6,789 nucleotides of DNA from Thermoprotei archaeon (lineage in GTDB: Archaea > Thermoproteota > Thermoprotei > Thermofilales > B15-G2), in the NCBI GenBank assembly GCA_003649445.1, contig QMRV01000098.1:1-6789 (forward strand), written 5' to 3'. The notes beneath the pieces were generated by a model. That model made no database searches, had not been told where the DNA came from, and worked only from the letters and a program-made list of their open reading frames with translations. How positions within the stretch are numbered: position 1 is the first letter of the stretch; each line of letters starts with the position of its first letter. Below, piece by piece: positions 1 through 6,216 of the stretch. Both the position numbers and the translations under genes were made by a program.

Positions 1-485
1 CCGTCAGGATATGTAATTAAAGCTAAAAGAGGAGGTTTTCCGTAATTCTTTTTAACTAGCTCTATTTTTTCTTCAAAGTCCTCGGGTACTACTTTGAACT
101 CAGGGTAGTCTGTAGTCTTTGTTAAAACTACTTCAAGCATACTTCTCTCGGCTGCAAGAAGGCTCGTGTAGTGTGCATTTCCGTCTGCAACAACTACAGG
201 GGCTTTTTCATTCTTCAGTACATATTCTTTGTAGAGAGCGAACATTACTGTAAATATTCCTTCTCTAGCTCCGTGAACGAGTCTCACTTTACTGCAGTCG
301 ATAAAGGTCTCGAGTTCTTCTACTAGTTTCTTGATATTAGGGCGCCTAATGCTGTGTAGATCTCCTGTACAGTAAAGGCATGTAGAATAGCCGTCTAGAT
401 AGTCTATTAAGTTCTTTTTCACTCCTTCGGGAACAATACCGCCGCTACGAATAGGATCAACAATAAGTATTCTACCCGACGACAC
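1..485 (-). CDS. pscS: Sep-tRNA:Cys-tRNA synthase (SepCysS), N-terminal part, runs off the window
   Basis: This PLP-dependent enzyme converts O-phosphoseryl-tRNA(Cys) to Cys-tRNA(Cys) using a sulfur donor, after SepRS has charged the tRNA with phosphoserine. It acts in the cytoplasm. The visible 161 codons carry the family's N-terminal landmarks in order: PIRSGGIVPEG (residues 11-21), GYSTCLYC with a CxxC pair at C36 and C39, HGAREG (71-76), DGNAHYTS (101-108) and the stretch ending LITYPD. The CxxC pair corresponds to two of the three cysteines (64, 67 and 272 in Methanocaldococcus jannaschii) known to relay sulfur. The PLP lysine and third cysteine lie beyond the window edge; the family is usually about 370-395 residues. 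The start is GTG at 485: the frame holds no ATG, GTG or TTG between it and an upstream TAG, and a TATA box at 509-520 suits a leaderless transcript. No SepRS gene is visible here. Recognition is from remembered family motifs, and I am confident of it. Confidence 0.93.
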   Translation of the reverse strand, partial: MSSGRILIVDPIRSGGIVPEGVKKNLIDYLDGYSTCLYCTGDLHSIRRPNIKKLVEELETFIDCSKVRLVHGAREGIFTVMFALYKEYVLKNEKAPVVVADGNAHYTSLLAAERSMLEVVLTKTTDYPEFKVVPEDFEEKIELVKKNYGKPPLLALITYPD

Positions 486-577: not shown

Positions 578-586
578 AATATATAC
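578..586 (+). promoter_or_regulatory. TATA box of the putative C/D guide RNA
   Basis: The sequence AATATATAC is preceded by an A-rich AAAG. Its centre at about 582 predicts initiation near 607-608, exactly where the terminal stem of the guide RNA begins. No protein gene starts at that distance, so the box is best explained by an RNA gene. Confidence 0.5.
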
Positions 587-607: not shown

Positions 608-676
608 AGCGGATGATTGATACCAGGCCGGCTCTGATGAATGATGACCTCTCGCCCCCTTTTGATGACCGCTTTT
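608..676 (+). ncRNA. Probable archaeal box C/D sRNA (2'-O-methylation guide)
   Basis: Elements appear in canonical order: a 5' strand AGCGG (608-612), C box ATGATTG (613-619), first guide (620-633), D' box CTGA (634-637), a 3-nt spacer, C' box ATGATGA (641-647, perfect consensus), second guide (648-664), D box ATGA (665-668), and CCGCT (669-673), which closes a 5-bp terminal stem with the 5' end. A TATA box sits about 26 bp upstream of the predicted start and a short T run (673-676) follows the stem. GC over 609-672 is 37 of 64, well above the AT-rich surroundings. Such RNAs bind L7Ae, Nop5 and fibrillarin and direct ribose methylation opposite the fifth nucleotide before D or D'. Weak points: the C and D boxes deviate from RTGATGA and CTGA, and the guides (14 and 17 nt) are longer than the usual 10-12. 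The modified targets are unknown. Confidence 0.6.
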
Positions 677-699: not shown

Positions 700-1827
700 A
701 TGTTCTATTACTATGGGAACTCTGTGTATACGCCCTATCCATTAATGCTCTTTGAGGAAGCGAGGGCCTTAGTTTCAAAGTATTTTTATGTGCTTCACTA
801 CGAGTTCGACGGCTTTGTACCTGTTTTCTATATTCAGCCTGACGGCGACTTGAAGAGTAAATTTAAGGAATTTGCTCTTGAAGCTAAAAGTAGGAAGCTT
901 CTGCCTTTCTTGAGGAAGAGTAATGGTTATTTGACTATAAGAGTACTTCCTTTCGAACCTAAGAGAAGGAACCCTAAGACACCTCTACTTCTCTTTGTGG
1001 TGACTTTCATTACAGTACTAATAGATGGTTTTCTTAGGGCTTCAGATAGTCTTCTACCTGAAGTGCTGGGACACGAAGTCAATGTTCTCTTAACGATGCT
1101 AGCCTATGCTTTAGCCCTAATGGCTATTGTAGGAATCCATGAAATGGGTCATAAAATAGTTTCGATGATACACGGCGTTAGAACATCGCTTCCCTACTTT
1201 ATACCAGCACCACCAGGAATAGGGATAGGAGGTACATTTGGAGCAGTTATTTTCCAAGAAGAGCCTCCGACAAATAAAGACGAGTTATTCGATATTGGCT
1301 TCAGCGGCCCTATTTTCGGCTTTTTAGCGACTGTGGTAGTCATGCTGGTAGCTGCTCGAGTTACAGGCGTTGTTTCGCTAGAGCAGCTTAAAGCTTGGAC
1401 AGAGCAGGGCTATGTCTTTGTTTACATTCCGACTCCTGTGTTAATGGATATTATTCTCTCATACTATAAGCCTCTTCCAGGACCCAACTATGTCTACTAC
1501 TTGCATCCACTAGCTTTCGTAGCCTGGGCAGGTTTCATTATTACAGCGCTAAATCTTTTCCCTGTTTGGCAACTCGACGGAGGCCATGTCATAAGAGCGC
1601 TTGTAGGTCCTAAGAGAGCTAGGCTCCTCTCTATAGCTGGTATAGCAGTGCTCTTTATTCTAGGGTACTGGATGATGGCTCTCATACTGTTGTTTTTCTT
1701 GATGATGGGAGGCAAACCTATAGAGCCTCTAGACAATGTTTCTCCGCTGAGCACTTCGAGGAAACTAATGATCATAGTGTACTTGGTTATACTAGTGCTG
1801 TGTCTACCAGCGCCGTTCTATGGATAA
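700..1827 (+). CDS. M50-family intramembrane zinc metalloprotease (site-2 protease type)
   Basis: This polytopic membrane protease cuts substrates within or near their transmembrane segment. The zinc motif HEMGH (H147, E148, H151) lies at the end of a hydrophobic segment. The second family motif appears as NLFPVWQLDGGH (285-296), in which D293 is the third zinc ligand. A conserved GP (GPIFG, 203-207) begins another membrane segment. Hydrophobic segments are visible at roughly 95-114, 126-146, 168-185, 201-219, 267-290, 307-336 and 354-372. Residues 1-90 form a soluble, probably cytoplasmic leading domain; I see neither a PDZ nor a CBS domain. At 375 residues it has the usual size of archaeal members and looks intact. 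The ATG at 700 lies about 24 bp from a TATA-like element. The next gene, 88 bp downstream on the same strand, encodes a single-pass surface protein that might be a substrate or partner (inference). The physiological substrate cannot be read from sequence. Confidence 0.93.
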   Translation: MFYYYGNSVYTPYPLMLFEEARALVSKYFYVLHYEFDGFVPVFYIQPDGDLKSKFKEFALEAKSRKLLPFLRKSNGYLTIRVLPFEPKRRNPKTPLLLFVVTFITVLIDGFLRASDSLLPEVLGHEVNVLLTMLAYALALMAIVGIHEMGHKIVSMIHGVRTSLPYFIPAPPGIGIGGTFGAVIFQEEPPTNKDELFDIGFSGPIFGFLATVVVMLVAARVTGVVSLEQLKAWTEQGYVFVYIPTPVLMDIILSYYKPLPGPNYVYYLHPLAFVAWAGFIITALNLFPVWQLDGGHVIRALVGPKRARLLSIAGIAVLFILGYWMMALILLFFLMMGGKPIEPLDNVSPLSTSRKLMIIVYLVILVLCLPAPFYG

Positions 1828-1915: not shown

Positions 1916-4060
1916 GTGAGAAAAGTTCTGGCGTTATTTCTTACAGGATTAATTCTTATTATTTTCTTCAAAGTCGAGACTATAGCTACTTCTTCTCAAG
2001 AAATCCATGTAATGAAGAAGGTCGAGTACTATTGTATACTCGGACTTAATGGTAAGATAGAGGAGTGGAAAGTAGATGTGGAGATAACTATTGAGGGAAC
2101 AGGCTTTCGCACTATTGTAGATAGGATATGGTTTGTTTCTCCTCAAGATATTTTAGAAATCTCACCTAAGCCTTCTTCAATAAAGTATTATGGCCGCTAC
2201 TTGAAGCTTATTTGGGAGCGCTTAAAGCTTCCAACTAATATAAAATATTCAGCGAGGCTTTTTACTCCTCCTCCGATAAACTACTCTGTCGAAATATCAG
2301 TTAATGGACGCAGAGCAGAAATTATTGAAAGAAATGGTGTAGACTATGTTAAAGTAGAAGTAGGAGAAATAGTTTCACTCAATATTACTTTAGTGAATAC
2401 GAAGAAAAGATGGCTTTGCGAAAACAGCTACTTGAGGTTACCGCTGAACTTAATCATAATGTTTAACTTTCCTTCATACCTTAAGCCTTTATCGCTTAGT
2501 CCACAGCCGAACTCTACAATTATGATCGGAGACGAGAGAATGCACGTCTGGATGATTACTCTCTATAACAATATAAGCCTGAGTTTTAAAGCAAAAGTAG
2601 AAGAAGTAAACCCTTGGGGTGAAGTACCCCTCAAACGCATATCGATACAAGTTATCGACAGACCTGATTTAGTTGCTGAAAGAGTAGAGGAAATAATGAA
2701 TCGACTGAACGAGTATATCGAAGGATTATCGTCAATTGTCAGTAAGATGAAAGAAGGCATAAATGCTTCTCTTAAGCTTGCCGAAGGATTGGCCAATATA
2801 TCTACTGTGTTGAATAACACTGGTTACTCGCTTCTTAAAATATCAAGTGTTCTTAAGGATTCTGGAGAAAACTTAATAAAAGCTTCAGAAGAGATGAAGT
2901 CACTTATTAAGTCATTTAAAGGATCTATCTCATATGCTTCAGCTACATTAAATAAAATAAGTGAAGTACTGAAAGCTCTAGAGTCAAGTGAAGTAGATTA
3001 CAATGAAGTAATAAGTTCACTAGAAGAGGCAATCGATACATTGAAGAAGATATATCCTCAAAACGAAACAATAATACAGCTTTTAGAAGGCTTAAAGACT
3101 TTAATTGAGCAACTAAGCCAAAATCAAGAAGAACTATTTGAAGAGGTAGAGAAACTCAAAAAAATGGTGTCTTCAATAAACAGAGCTATTGAAGAAGGAG
3201 AAGAGGCCGCAGATAAGCTTAAAGAAGCCGGGCAGGGTTTTGTTAAATTATCATCGTCTATTAACTTAATAGGGTATACTAACATAAATTTGTCTCTTGT
3301 TCTCTACAATATTTCAGAAACTTTAGTGAGAACAGTTAATTCAAGCTTAAAACAACTCTCAACTATGGAAAATAAGCTAAATAATTTAACTGAAACAAAA
3401 GATCATCTAGAAAAAATAAGAAAATGTGCTTACGCGGAGTGGAACCTTTACTACAAGTACTCTCTTGAAATACTCTCAGAAAGTGCTGAGCAGAAGCCGA
3501 AAATAGAAATAGTGGCTATTAATAATACTGTAAAAGGTATCGTAGTGAAAACAGAGAACACTATCTATGGACTGGTGATTAAAAGCTCGAGTAAAATTAT
3601 TGTTGCTACATCTGAGAACAAAACAGTATCAGAAGAAGCCAGTATCTACACTATGGAAACATCTGTTCTAATATGTCCGTTAAGCAATGGCAGTGTCCTC
3701 AGAAACGCTGTTGACACAAAAATAATTCTTCTTAACGTCTCTAACCCCTCCGTAGAATTAGATGTTTGTAAATCTCCCGTTGACGCAGAGTACTCAACAG
3801 CATTTTCTTTAGAGCTAGTTCTTCCACGTCTATTTTCAGTTAAAGAGTTCGTGCCAACAGGGTACCATAAAGGTGAGACTACCGAAGAAGCAACGGGCAA
3901 AAATATTGTTCTAATAACAGTTTCCGCTTTATCTATTATCGCAATTTTGTATATTGCTATTAAAGCAAGAAAACACGAAAAAATCGAAGTAGATATTACG
4001 GATATACTCGAAGAAATAGAGGAAATACGTAGAGAAGTATCTAAGAGGGCGAAGACTTAA
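1916..4060 (+). CDS. Unrecognised surface-anchored coiled-coil protein, 714 residues
   Basis: I do not recognise a named family. The layout is clear. A signal peptide or N-terminal anchor (residues 1-24, basic MRK then a hydrophobic run) is followed by a beta-rich domain (about 30-248), a long helical, heptad-like region (about 250-503) rich in Leu, Ile, Glu and Lys, a second beta-rich stretch (about 527-640), a short linker, one membrane segment (664-682), and a 32-residue charged tail that begins KARKHEK and looks cytoplasmic. Sixteen N-x-S/T sequons (proline excluded) lie between residues 122 and 607 and none in the tail, as expected for an N-glycosylated external domain. Five cysteines (40, 168, 504, 587, 618) could form disulfides. 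GTG at 1916 is the first possible start after an in-frame TAA, and the next ATG would remove the signal peptide. Parts of the helical region recall the spaced Leu/Gly helices of YhgE/Pip-type proteins, but no transport domain is present. A cell-surface structural, adhesive or sensing role is inference. Confidence 0.85.
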   Translation: MRKVLALFLTGLILIIFFKVETIATSSQEIHVMKKVEYYCILGLNGKIEEWKVDVEITIEGTGFRTIVDRIWFVSPQDILEISPKPSSIKYYGRYLKLIWERLKLPTNIKYSARLFTPPPINYSVEISVNGRRAEIIERNGVDYVKVEVGEIVSLNITLVNTKKRWLCENSYLRLPLNLIIMFNFPSYLKPLSLSPQPNSTIMIGDERMHVWMITLYNNISLSFKAKVEEVNPWGEVPLKRISIQVIDRPDLVAERVEEIMNRLNEYIEGLSSIVSKMKEGINASLKLAEGLANISTVLNNTGYSLLKISSVLKDSGENLIKASEEMKSLIKSFKGSISYASATLNKISEVLKALESSEVDYNEVISSLEEAIDTLKKIYPQNETIIQLLEGLKTLIEQLSQNQEELFEEVEKLKKMVSSINRAIEEGEEAADKLKEAGQGFVKLSSSINLIGYTNINLSLVLYNISETLVRTVNSSLKQLSTMENKLNNLTETKDHLEKIRKCAYAEWNLYYKYSLEILSESAEQKPKIEIVAINNTVKGIVVKTENTIYGLVIKSSSKIIVATSENKTVSEEASIYTMETSVLICPLSNGSVLRNAVDTKIILLNVSNPSVELDVCKSPVDAEYSTAFSLELVLPRLFSVKEFVPTGYHKGETTEEATGKNIVLITVSALSIIAILYIAIKARKHEKIEVDITDILEEIEEIRREVSKRAKT

Positions 4061-4778
4061 TATATCCTTTAAGAAGCTCTCTTATCTCATTAGATGCCTT
4101 AGCAATATCGCTTTCTTTTCCAAGTAAATATATTTCTACTTCTCCGCTATTAAGTACTCTAGTCTTAAAATATATCTTAGGATATTTTTTAGCAATAGAG
4201 TATATTTTTTCAAAAACAGAGATCTCAGGGAGACCGCTTACTCTAATTCTTTCTTCATATAACTTTTCAGCAGAATATTTTTCCAAATATTTTTCTACTT
4301 CAGGAAACATAGATTTGAGCTCGTGGGGAGGACCTGGTAGGCAGACTACTATTTTAGAGTCGTGTTCTATGATCATTCCCGGCGCAGAGCCTACTTTGTT
4401 GAATATTATGTAGCATCCTTCAATTACATAGGACATTTTTTCGGTAGCCTTCAAGCCACATTTTCTCTCACGTAAAATATAGTCAAAAACTTCTTTGCTT
4501 AACACTAGCTTGCGTTTGAGCACTTGCGCTACAGCCTCGCGCGTAACATCGTCGGAAGTAGGACCTAAACCGCCTGTCAAAATTATTAAATTCGCTCGTT
4601 TCATAGATTCTTCTAAAGCACTACTTATTTCCTCAATGCTATCTCCAACTACTATAATTCTTCTTACAGTAAAACCCTTGAGAGTTAGTCTTTTAGCAAT
4701 CCACACGGCATTAGTGTTTACTACTTCTCCTACTAGAAGCTCTTTTCCTGTTGAAATTATCTCTACAATCATCTTCAT
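4041..4778 (-). CDS. CinA N-terminal / MoaB-MogA-like domain protein (COG1058 type)
   Basis: This is a soluble protein of the molybdopterin-binding-like fold that forms the N-terminal half of bacterial CinA, where that half has been linked to nucleotide (ADP-ribose) pyrophosphatase activity. Visible motifs are ISTGKELLVGEVVNTNA (8-24), TGGLGPTSDDVT (68-79, the fold's signature), VGSAPGM (129-135) and CLPGPPHE (146-153). A C-terminal alpha/beta domain continues to about 238. At 245 residues it matches the stand-alone archaeal form and lacks CinA's nicotinamide-nucleotide amidase domain. The ATG at 4778 is preferred over the one at 4772 because a TATA box at 4798-4806 lies about 25 bp upstream. 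No molybdopterin synthesis gene is nearby, so a cofactor role is not supported by context. Its last 20 bp overlap the end of the convergent coiled-coil protein gene. The family call is secure; its in vivo substrate is not. Confidence 0.9.
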   Translation of the reverse strand: MKMIVEIISTGKELLVGEVVNTNAVWIAKRLTLKGFTVRRIIVVGDSIEEISSALEESMKRANLIILTGGLGPTSDDVTREAVAQVLKRKLVLSKEVFDYILRERKCGLKATEKMSYVIEGCYIIFNKVGSAPGMIIEHDSKIVVCLPGPPHELKSMFPEVEKYLEKYSAEKLYEERIRVSGLPEISVFEKIYSIAKKYPKIYFKTRVLNSGEVEIYLLGKESDIAKASNEIRELLKGYIKSSPS

Positions 4779-4860: not shown

Positions 4861-5325
4861 ATGAATAGATGTCTTTGTTGTTCTCGGCGTAGAGCTTCGA
4901 GAAAAATGCTACTCAGAAGCGAGGAAGGAGAAGAAATTCCTATAAGTCTATGCATAGAGTGCTACCATGAGTGGGTCTATATTTCAAAAGAGTATAGATT
5001 CCCTCTAAGTACTTGTGCTATAGAAAATTTTCGTAAGTTATGTAGGCATAAACTGCACCTTGAGGACTACGAGTACTTAGCATACAAAAACGAGTACCAA
5101 GAAGTGCTCGATGCACTTCGCGAAGTAGGGATAAAGGTATCTAAAACGACCCTAAAGAATGCTGTAAACTGCGATGAAAAGTGCTTAAAGTGGATTAAAG
5201 CTCTTCTTAGAGCACTACCAGAGGAAAAGAAAAAAGTACTTACTAGTCGGCTAAATACTCTCTACAGAGAAAAAGATAGCTATGTAGCAAAACTACTCTT
5301 AAGTTTGCTCAAAAATTCGCACTAA
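4861..5325 (+). CDS. Small protein with N-terminal four-cysteine zinc-binding motif, unknown function
   Basis: I do not recognise a named family. The N-terminus has two CxxC knuckles, C4-x-x-C7 and C31-x-x-C34, separated by 23 residues with a short beta-type turn (RSEEGEEIPISL) between them. This is the pattern of a zinc ribbon or similar fold; C6 is an additional cysteine. The rest (about 60-154) is basic and mostly helical, with a further C104/C108 pair. There is no signal peptide or membrane segment, so it is probably cytoplasmic; a nucleic-acid or protein-binding role is plausible but unproven. The ATG at 4861 is fixed by a strong TATA box about 28 bp upstream. Its 3' end overlaps the convergent nuclease-like gene by 27 bp. 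The promoter placement and the paired cysteines support a real gene. Confidence 0.8.
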   Translation: MNRCLCCSRRRASRKMLLRSEEGEEIPISLCIECYHEWVYISKEYRFPLSTCAIENFRKLCRHKLHLEDYEYLAYKNEYQEVLDALREVGIKVSKTTLKNAVNCDEKCLKWIKALLRALPEEKKKVLTSRLNTLYREKDSYVAKLLLSLLKNSH

Positions 5326-6216
5326 TTCCTTTCCTATAAAACGGTAATTGTACTGCACTCCATCAATCAGCACAACACTGTATTCAGCCAAATCTTCACG
5401 GATACTAGAAGGAACTTTTACTCGAGAAACAAGTATCATTTTATGAGGCTTGAATACTTCAATATAGTTTCTAACAAGCTCTATGTTAGAAATTTTTCCC
5501 CATATTCTGGCATTCTCTTTCTCAAACCATTTAGATCCTGACTCTACTTCAACTATGTAATCAGGTGAGGGATATACTCTATTATTAGCAAAAGCTATCT
5601 CAGGGACTAGTCTGCTATAGATCATTAAGTCAGGTCTATAGCGCGGTATGCCGCTTCCTTTAACAGGTCTAAGTGCTTCATAAAAAATGCTCATATACTT
5701 CCCGTCGGCAGTAGCTAGAACTACTGTAGCTGGAATTTTCCTAGGTAATGTTCTTCTCTCTAAAATTAGCTTAGAAGACGGCTTAAGGATATCGGCCTTC
5801 AAGTACAGCAGCAGAGAAAGAAATACAAACATCTGATATAGATCTCTCTCCTTTATATTTAAAGAAAGCCTTATAGCTGCTCTTACTCTATCAAAAAACT
5901 CTAATCCCGATAATTTGCCTAAACTATATAGCTTAAATACTTTTTTAAGACTAATAAAGCATTTAGGATCTAGCTCTAAAACGTATTCTTTTATAGATCC
6001 TTTTTCAATCAATTTATTAATACTAAATCCAGCGTCAATTTCTTCTATAGAATACTTTGACTTTATTTTACCAATAAGCATTAATATTTTACTTAGAAGT
6101 GTATCTAGTTCTCTGCACTTCTCATGAAACTCTGTTATGAGCAATCCAGCTGCGATTTCTCTAGCTTTTGCTACGGCGTTAAGTATTTCATGCTCTGATA
6201 CAGAGGACACTATCAC
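5299..6216 (-). CDS. Putative PD-(D/E)XK-type nuclease-fold protein, 305 residues
   Basis: I do not recognise a named family. Residues 1-150 look helical. The C-terminal half has an order that fits the restriction-endonuclease-like core: E180 in a helix (SIFYEALRP), a strand with RPDLMI (D196), a strand DYIVEVES with E223 and E225, then a helix (about 232-254), a strand HKMILVSRV (258-266) and a last strand SVVLID (280-285). The usual ExK is replaced by ExE, as known in BamHI; K229 or K233 might act as a displaced lysine. Catalysis is therefore inferred, and a non-catalytic or unrelated fold remains possible. No methyltransferase, helicase or CRISPR gene is adjacent, so a restriction or defence role has no support from context. 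The first possible start is GTG at 6216. A second in-frame GTG at 6210 fits a TATA box at 6234-6243 about equally well. The gene runs convergent to the CxxC protein with a 27-bp overlap. Confidence 0.75.
   Translation of the reverse strand: MIVSSVSEHEILNAVAKAREIAAGLLITEFHEKCRELDTLLSKILMLIGKIKSKYSIEEIDAGFSINKLIEKGSIKEYVLELDPKCFISLKKVFKLYSLGKLSGLEFFDRVRAAIRLSLNIKERDLYQMFVFLSLLLYLKADILKPSSKLILERRTLPRKIPATVVLATADGKYMSIFYEALRPVKGSGIPRYRPDLMIYSRLVPEIAFANNRVYPSPDYIVEVESGSKWFEKENARIWGKISNIELVRNYIEVFKPHKMILVSRVKVPSSIREDLAEYSVVLIDGVQYNYRFIGKELVRIFEQT

What the first reader, a model, noticed from the sequence alone, without database searches (positions are those of the whole stretch)
608..676. Unannotated box C/D guide RNA between divergent genes
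Seen: C, D', C' and D boxes in the correct order, a closing 5-bp terminal stem flush with the C and D boxes, a 3-nt D'-C' spacer, a TATA box about 26 bp upstream of the predicted 5' end, and higher GC than the surroundings. Known: this is the architecture of archaeal 2'-O-methylation guides. ORF-based annotation would miss it.
Basis: partly seen in the sequence, partly recalled or inferred. Interest (0 to 1): 0.75.

Follow-up and report, generated by a model that had tools for sequence, protein, structure and literature searches.

The report
Archaeal C/D-box methylation guide RNA
A short unannotated stretch between two genes of an uncultured archaeon very probably encodes a small guide RNA that directs methylation of ribosomal RNA, an ordinary kind of archaeal RNA gene that gene finders based on proteins miss.

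Summary
Observation confirmed, interpretation supported. Window 608-673(+) has the anatomy of an archaeal C/D box sRNA: C AUGAUUG, D' CUGA, 3-nt spacer, C' AUGAUGA, D AUGA and a 5-bp closing stem. A relaxed scan found such an arrangement in 1 of 1000 order-2 Markov copies of the window. MAG Thermoprotei archaeon B15_G2 keeps it between the same divergent genes (SepCysS, M50 protease) while the rest of the gap does not align. A similar guide pair lies elsewhere in another class genome, G037. B15_G2 encodes fibrillarin, Nop and L7Ae-family proteins and 18 other C/D candidates in the stretches scanned. Against rRNAs of 11 order relatives, the best joint site of the window's two guides is a 16S pair about 65 nt apart in 10 of 11, so a 16S double guide is the best mechanism. 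The D' target is firmer than the D target. Against: host rRNA is not held, the stem is absent in B15_G2, its D guide prefers another 16S spot, Rfam gives no match over threshold, and transcription is untested. New member of a known kind.

The parts
578..586 (+). TATA-like AT-rich box AATATATAC, possible own promoter
   Evidence: Read; B15_G2 has an AT-rich stretch (L001 9801-9809) at a similar distance before its C box. Weak evidence by itself.
608..612 (+). 5' arm of terminal stem, AGCGG
   Evidence: Pairs with 669-673; not conserved in L001.
613..619 (+). box C, AUGAUUG (consensus RUGAUGA; position 6 is U)
   Evidence: AUGAUU kept in L001.
620..633 (+). D' guide AUACCAGGCCGGCU; predicted target in 16S rRNA, AGCCGGCC region
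   Evidence: ACCAGGCCGGC identical in L001; complementarity.
634..637 (+). box D', CUGA
638..640 (+). D'-C' spacer, 3 nt (length kept in L001 and G037, letters not)
641..647 (+). box C', AUGAUGA
648..664 (+). D guide CCUCUCGCCCCCUUUUG; tentative target in 16S rRNA, AGGGGGCGGGAG region
   Evidence: GCCCC core shared with L001 and G037; complementarity.
665..668 (+). box D, AUGA (position 1 is A, matching U at box C position 6)
   Evidence: UUGA 662-665 is the alternative.
669..673 (+). 3' arm of terminal stem, CCGCU
3..485 (-). flanking gene, start of a SepCysS (O-phospho-L-seryl-tRNA:Cys-tRNA synthase) homologue, cut by the window edge
   Evidence: TIGR02539 E 1.6e-43, 149 bits, below the 365-bit cut-off for the whole protein; PDB 2e7i E 3.1e-28.
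700..1827 (+). flanking gene, M50-family metalloprotease
   Evidence: PF02163 E 2e-20; 70% identity in L001.

Best explanation
Window 608-673(+) is a gene for an archaeal C/D box sRNA. Shown by sequence: four boxes in order with guide-sized spacers, kept at the same place in another genome. Inferred from the known family: boxes C/D form a k-turn and C'/D' a k-loop bound by L7Ae; Nop5 and fibrillarin join; each guide pairs with a target RNA, and fibrillarin methylates the 2'-OH opposite the fifth guide nucleotide before box D' or D. Inferred from complementarity to rRNAs of relatives: it is a double guide for the central domain of 16S rRNA. The D' guide pairs with AGCCGGCC (about E. coli 583-595, +5 base about G587) and the D guide tentatively with AGGGGGCGGGAG about 65-70 nt downstream (about E. 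coli 653-664). Separate confidences: C/D sRNA 0.93; D' target in 16S about 0.65; D target in 16S about 0.35. The overall figure is for the statement that it is a C/D guide sRNA.
For: Anatomy with low chance rate. Conservation between the same divergent genes in B15_G2 with blastn 608-661 against 9827-9879, 80%, E 4e-6, and no other alignment in the gap. Non-syntenic copy in G037 found by a model of the other two, 21.2 bits, E 4.2e-4, and by the pattern search, 3 of 398 genomes against 0 of 398 for the reversed pattern. Fibrillarin, Nop and L7Ae-family genes in B15_G2; 20 C/D-like hits in 1,359,434 bases of it against 0 in each of five Markov controls. Box C position 6 and box D position 1 covary and the window fits. 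Joint guide match to 16S: shuffles as good in 3 of 1000 with G020 rRNA; in 10 of 11 relatives the best joint site is the same 16S pair.
Against: No transcript evidence. No Rfam match over threshold. Stem not kept in L001, and flush stem is atypical. Own rRNA of the host, of B15_G2 and of G037 not held. D' duplex has one mismatch in the relatives. With G012 rRNA the window guides fit a 23S pair best. The L001 D guide prefers a spot about 25 nt further down in all 11 relatives. Single guides are weak: D guide 166 of 1000 shuffles as good. tRNA-Leu is an alternative for the D guide.
Confidence: 0.92

Rival explanations
1. It is a C/D box sRNA, but the D guide (and so part of its job) serves tRNA-Leu rather than 16S rRNA: UUUCCCCC pairs with the AAAGGGGG stretch of tRNA-Leu.
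For: In B15_G2 tRNA-Leu(GAG) the window D guide makes 11 pairs (two G-U) with the +5 base inside the duplex. Archaeal guides to tRNAs are known (PMC4644070 section 16 read).
Against: Score 25.0 against 31.5 for 16S with the same guide. Only 18 tRNAs were found in the 1.36 million bases. The tRNA is from B15_G2, whose own D guide fits it less well (23.5) than 16S (27.0-29.0).
Confidence: 0.2
2. It is a k-turn element in the 5' leader of the M50 protease mRNA, through which L7Ae controls translation in cis, rather than a guide RNA in trans.
For: It lies on the same strand, 26 nt before the M50 start codon. L7Ae control through 5'-UTR k-turns is known in archaea (PMC5539422, abstract seen).
Against: In L001 the distance to the likely start codon is about 92 nt (read). 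The G037 copy has no M50 or SepCysS among the ORFs listed around it (judged by eye). A cis k-turn needs no C', D' boxes or conserved guides.
Confidence: 0.04
3. Chance arrangement of short boxes in an intergenic gap.
For: Boxes are short and two of them are not consensus; no Rfam match over threshold.
Against: 1 of 1000 Markov copies with any relaxed hit and conservation restricted to the site in L001, with a third copy in G037.
Confidence: 0.02

Closest known systems
Archaeal C/D box sRNAs, double-guide type (Dennis et al. 2015, PMC4644070, sections 5, 6, 8-11 and 16 read)
   Same: Box order, guide layout, length, two guides that fit rRNA within 100 nt, and slipping of the guide register between copies.
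   Different: Boxes C and D depart from consensus in a paired way; 5-bp stem flush with the boxes; targets are inferred from relatives' rRNA only.
Rfam sR47 (RF01131), an archaeal C/D sRNA family
   Same: Best Rfam match on the site; it aligns over the whole model.
   Different: 17.8 bits, far below the gathering score of 40; guides differ. It is not a member on this test.
sRNAs proposed as rRNA folding chaperones, e.g. N. equitans sR15 and sR17 (PMC4644070 section 11 read)
   Same: Two guides of one sRNA fit two places of 16S.
   Different: There the sites are distant in sequence; here about 65-70 nt apart. The chaperone role is a proposal there and untested here.

Membership tests
archaeal C/D box sRNA | Boxes C, D', C', D in this order | tested here: met
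   C and D are variant, D' and C' canonical.
archaeal C/D box sRNA | Box C RUGAUGA and box D CUGA, able to form the GA/AG k-turn | tested here: inconclusive
   UGA of both boxes present; position 6 of C and position 1 of D changed together (U, A), as in other B15_G2 candidates. No k-turn folding was tested.
archaeal C/D box sRNA | Guides of about 10-12 nt between boxes, total about 50-70 nt | tested here: met
   Spacers 14 and 17 nt (14 and 14 with the alternative box D), total 66 nt with stem. Somewhat longer than the usual 12.
archaeal C/D box sRNA | Terminal stem that brings C and D together | tested here: inconclusive
   5 bp in the window, not kept in L001; flush stem leaves a 2-nt bulge.
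archaeal C/D box sRNA | Guide complementarity to rRNA or tRNA that covers the +5 position | tested here: inconclusive
   Met with relatives' 16S for the D' guide with one mismatch; edge of the duplex for the D guide. Host rRNA not held.
archaeal C/D box sRNA | Organism has L7Ae, Nop5 and fibrillarin | tested here: met
   In the relative B15_G2; the window's own genome is not held.
archaeal C/D box sRNA | Expressed small RNA bound by the RNP and guiding methylation | not testable with these tools
   No RNA data.
Rfam sR47 (RF01131) | Score at or above the gathering threshold | tested here: not met
   17.8 bits against 40.

The most novel reading that the evidence does not exclude
In the lineage of the window and B15_G2 some C/D guide RNAs have exchanged the G-C pair between box C position 6 and box D position 1 for U-A or A-U. 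This sRNA is such a variant and works as a two-site clamp on the 16S central domain around helix 21, kept across the class apart from its gene context while its D-guide register drifts.
Probability: 0.25. Interest if true: 0.4.

Novelty: new member of a known kind. Interest (0 to 1): 0.25.

Why it matters
It adds a credible non-coding gene that ORF-based annotation and Rfam thresholds miss, and it shows that the guide set of an uncultured archaeal lineage can be read from metagenome contigs. If the paired change of box C position 6 and box D position 1 is general, C/D sRNA finders should accept paired non-consensus boxes.

Tried and rejected
Rfam at E up to 5: four weak matches in the window, none at its gathering score, one of them (sR47) on the site. 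snoR66 at 1939-2020(-) scored higher (24.4 bits, gathering 43) but lies antisense to the start of ORF 1916-4060; taken as chance, not followed.

Sigma-70-type promoter and terminator scan: uninformative here and of the wrong type for archaea. Fold energy: not informative.

Alternative box C CGGAUGA (610-616) with box D UUGA (662-665): leaves a terminal stem of about one pair, and UUGA has no counterpart in L001, which has AUGA. Set aside, not excluded.

Model searches of 81 class genomes: R1 at E<=1 gave a match in 18 of 81, R2 at E<=0.1 in 19 of 81. I saw the printed alignments of the best 10 of 23 matches and the letters of 13 loci and 25; five of those 25 came from shorter loci and printed the wrong place, so they were not judged. 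Apart from B15_G2 and G037 (which is itself in R2) the ones I judged show boxes with other guides or no clear C/D layout. G035 (L120/L244) shares only the D-guide core and was not counted as an orthologue. The G390 pattern hit has no C or D box at guide distance and was taken as chance.

M50 search in the order of B15_G2: 1 of 27 genomes. LSU family: none in B15_G2; SSU family: none in B15_G2 (G001 row); SSU in 16 further class genomes: 7 with a match, none in G037 or G035. So no target test on an own genome was possible.

The surrogate rRNA (G020) was chosen after one search had shown a good D' match there; therefore repeated the test with all 11 relatives that have both full rRNAs.

Full report
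What was checked. No whole genome is held for the window. The finding lies in a 214-bp gap (486-699) between two divergent genes. The left gene matches SepCysS (TIGR02539 E 1.6e-43, below the whole-protein cut-off because the window cuts it; PDB 2e7i E 3.1e-28). The right gene is an M50 metalloprotease (PF02163 E 2e-20). A relaxed scan found this site only, with box D either AUGA or UUGA. Order-2 Markov copies of the window gave any hit in 1 of 1000 and a hit with canonical D' and C' in 0 of 1000. The scan rules were set after seeing the site and its L001 copy, so this measures rarity and is not a blind test.

Conservation. The M50 search of species genomes gave 75 loci; one is close, L001 (QMSB01000007.1, MAG Thermoprotei archaeon B15_G2), 70% identical, the next 44%. 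L001 has the same divergent pair. In the gap only window 608-661 aligns, to L001 9827-9879 (80%, E 4e-6); nothing else between the genes aligned at E 10 with words of 7. The alignment keeps AUGAUU of box C, ACCAGGCCGGC of the D' guide, CUGA, a 3-nt spacer with other letters, purine-UGAUGA, the GCCCC core of the D guide and AUGA of box D. It does not keep the 5-bp stem. The M50 protein occurs in 1 of 27 genomes of that order, B15_G2 itself, so synteny rests on one comparison.

A copy without synteny. The pattern GGCCGGCNYTGA-N(2-6)-RTGATG occurs in 3 of 398 phylum genomes, the reversed control in 0 of 398: B15_G2, G037 and G390. The G390 hit has no C or D box at guide distance. The G037 copy is complete: C GUGAUGA, guide CUAACUGGGCCGGCC, D' UUGA, spacer UUG, C' GUGAUGU, guide GUACCCGCCCCCU, D CUGA. 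A model made from the window and L001 alone found it at 21.2 bits, E 4.2e-4 for one genome. The ORFs listed around it do not look like SepCysS or M50 (judged by eye). Shared guides could also arise by convergence on the same rRNA site.

The guide system in the relative. B15_G2 (G001) has fibrillarin (E 5.5e-103) and Nop (E 1.5e-74) close together on contig C9, and two L7Ae-family matches. In 88 stretches, 1,359,434 of about 2.0 million bases, the relaxed scan gave 20 hits and 0 in each of five order-2 Markov controls. One of the 20 is the L001 copy and one overlaps another hit and is probably spurious, leaving 18 other candidates. In 400,000 bases of G037 it gave 12 hits and in 350,127 bases of G020 one weak hit.

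Which boxes. Position 6 of box C faces position 1 of box D in a C/D k-turn (recalled). With alternatives chosen by spacing only, B15_G2 has 14 G-C, 3 U-A, 1 A-U and 2 G/A of 20; G037 12 G-C of 12; G020 one A/A of 1. Pooled as G or not against C or not: 26, 2, 0, 5; Fisher p 8.8e-5; B15_G2 alone p 0.003. The L001 copy, which prompted the idea, is among them, and related sRNAs are not independent. The window has U618 and A665, the same exchange, which favours AUGA over UUGA as box D. With AUGA the 5-bp stem lies flush and leaves a 2-nt bulge; in B15_G2 candidates that have a stem of three or more pairs the 3-nt bulge is the more frequent.

Targets. Host, B15_G2 and G037 rRNAs are not held, so rRNAs of order relatives served. 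With 16S and 23S of G020, the best joint site within 100 nt for the window guides is 16S 546 (D') and 611 (D); shuffled guide pairs did as well in 3 of 1000. L001 guides: 546 and 640, 6 of 1000. G037 guides: 546 and 615, 1 of 1000, the same D site as the window's, whose longer guide starts 4 nt earlier. Singly (D', D): window 15 and 166, L001 231 and 175, G037 44 and 111 of 1000. Because G020 had been picked, one search repeated this with all 11 relatives that have both rRNAs: for the window guides the same 16S pair is best in 10 of 11, with 0-4 of 200 shuffles as good; with G012 a 23S pair is best (3 of 200). For the G037 guides the 16S pair is best in 11 of 11 (0-4 of 200). For the L001 guides the D' site is the same in 11 of 11, but the D guide's best partner lies about 25 nt further down in 11 of 11 (0-13 of 200). 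So the D' site is shared by three sRNAs; the D site by two.

Details of the duplexes. D': eight Watson-Crick pairs, one A.C mismatch, four pairs, with +5 paired. AGCCGGC is present in 21 of 21 relatives read, AGCCGGCC in 19 of 21; one (G030) has AGCCGGCCU, so a U that would mend the mismatch does occur in the class. AGGGGGCGGGAG is exact in 13 of 21. The D duplex of the window is 12 pairs with one G-U, with +5 at its edge. With these boxes the +5 base would be A653 for the window and G657 for G037. Dennis et al. describe such slipping of the site by indels in duplicated sRNAs (PMC4644070 section 10 read). For the D guide, tRNA-Leu(GAG) of B15_G2 is an alternative (11 pairs, two of them G-U).

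How it works. Shown: conserved box-and-guide anatomy and, in a relative, the protein partners. Inferred from the family (PMC7994747 section 3 read): L7Ae binds k-turn and k-loop, Nop5 and fibrillarin follow, and the base opposite the fifth guide nucleotide is methylated. Inferred from complementarity: the 16S sites. Not shown: transcription, processing, methylation.

What is known. The class is well described: 489 sRNAs in seven archaea, 262 of them predicted double guides (PMC4644070 section 16 read). Its supplementary tables were not read, so I cannot say whether these 16S sites are already predicted elsewhere; the main text does not hold 'helix 20', 'helix 21' or 'helix 22', and a search for double guide, 16S rRNA, box sRNA and helix 22 gave no paper with all four. 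Only about 20% of such genes have a TATA-like motif (PMC7994747 section 9 read), so the TATA-like box is plausible and no proof. Papers seen: PMC4644070 (abstract, sections 5, 6, 8-11, 16, passages), PMC7994747 (abstract, sections 3 and 9), PMC5539422 (abstract, outline); others in listings only.

Verdict. Observation confirmed, interpretation supported, interest modest. The confidence in the D target was lowered from about 0.4 to 0.35, and the novel case from 0.3 to 0.25. The least ordinary part is the paired C6-D1 exchange in this lineage.

Noticed in passing
G001 (B15_G2) stretches: L146 10518(+), L208 4256(+), L147 11849(-), L164 14325(+): Four of 20 C/D candidates carry U-A or A-U in place of G-C between box C position 6 and box D position 1; 12 of 12 candidates in G037 have G-C.
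   Followed up: partly
L120/L244 around 1501-1545(+), genome G035: A C/D-like RNA that shares the D-guide core CUCCUGCCCC with the B15_G2 copy but has another D' guide, possibly a re-paired guide module.
   Followed up: no
window 1916-4060(+): ORF of 714 aa with no Pfam match at E 0.001; by eye a long helical stretch and a hydrophobic segment near each end. Blastn finds similar DNA in L001 in the same order.
   Followed up: no
window 4861-5325(+) and 5299-6216(-): Two ORFs without a Pfam match at E 0.001; the first has a CxxC-rich N-terminus by eye and only a sub-threshold NCBIfam match, the second none.
   Followed up: no
window 4041-4778(-): CinA/MoCF-type domain protein (PF00994 E 1.2e-35; best NCBIfam PRK01215 E 1.5e-60, below its cut-off).
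   Followed up: no
window 1939-2020(-): Sub-threshold Rfam match to snoR66 (24.4 bits, gathering 43), antisense to the start of ORF 1916-4060; probably chance.
   Followed up: no
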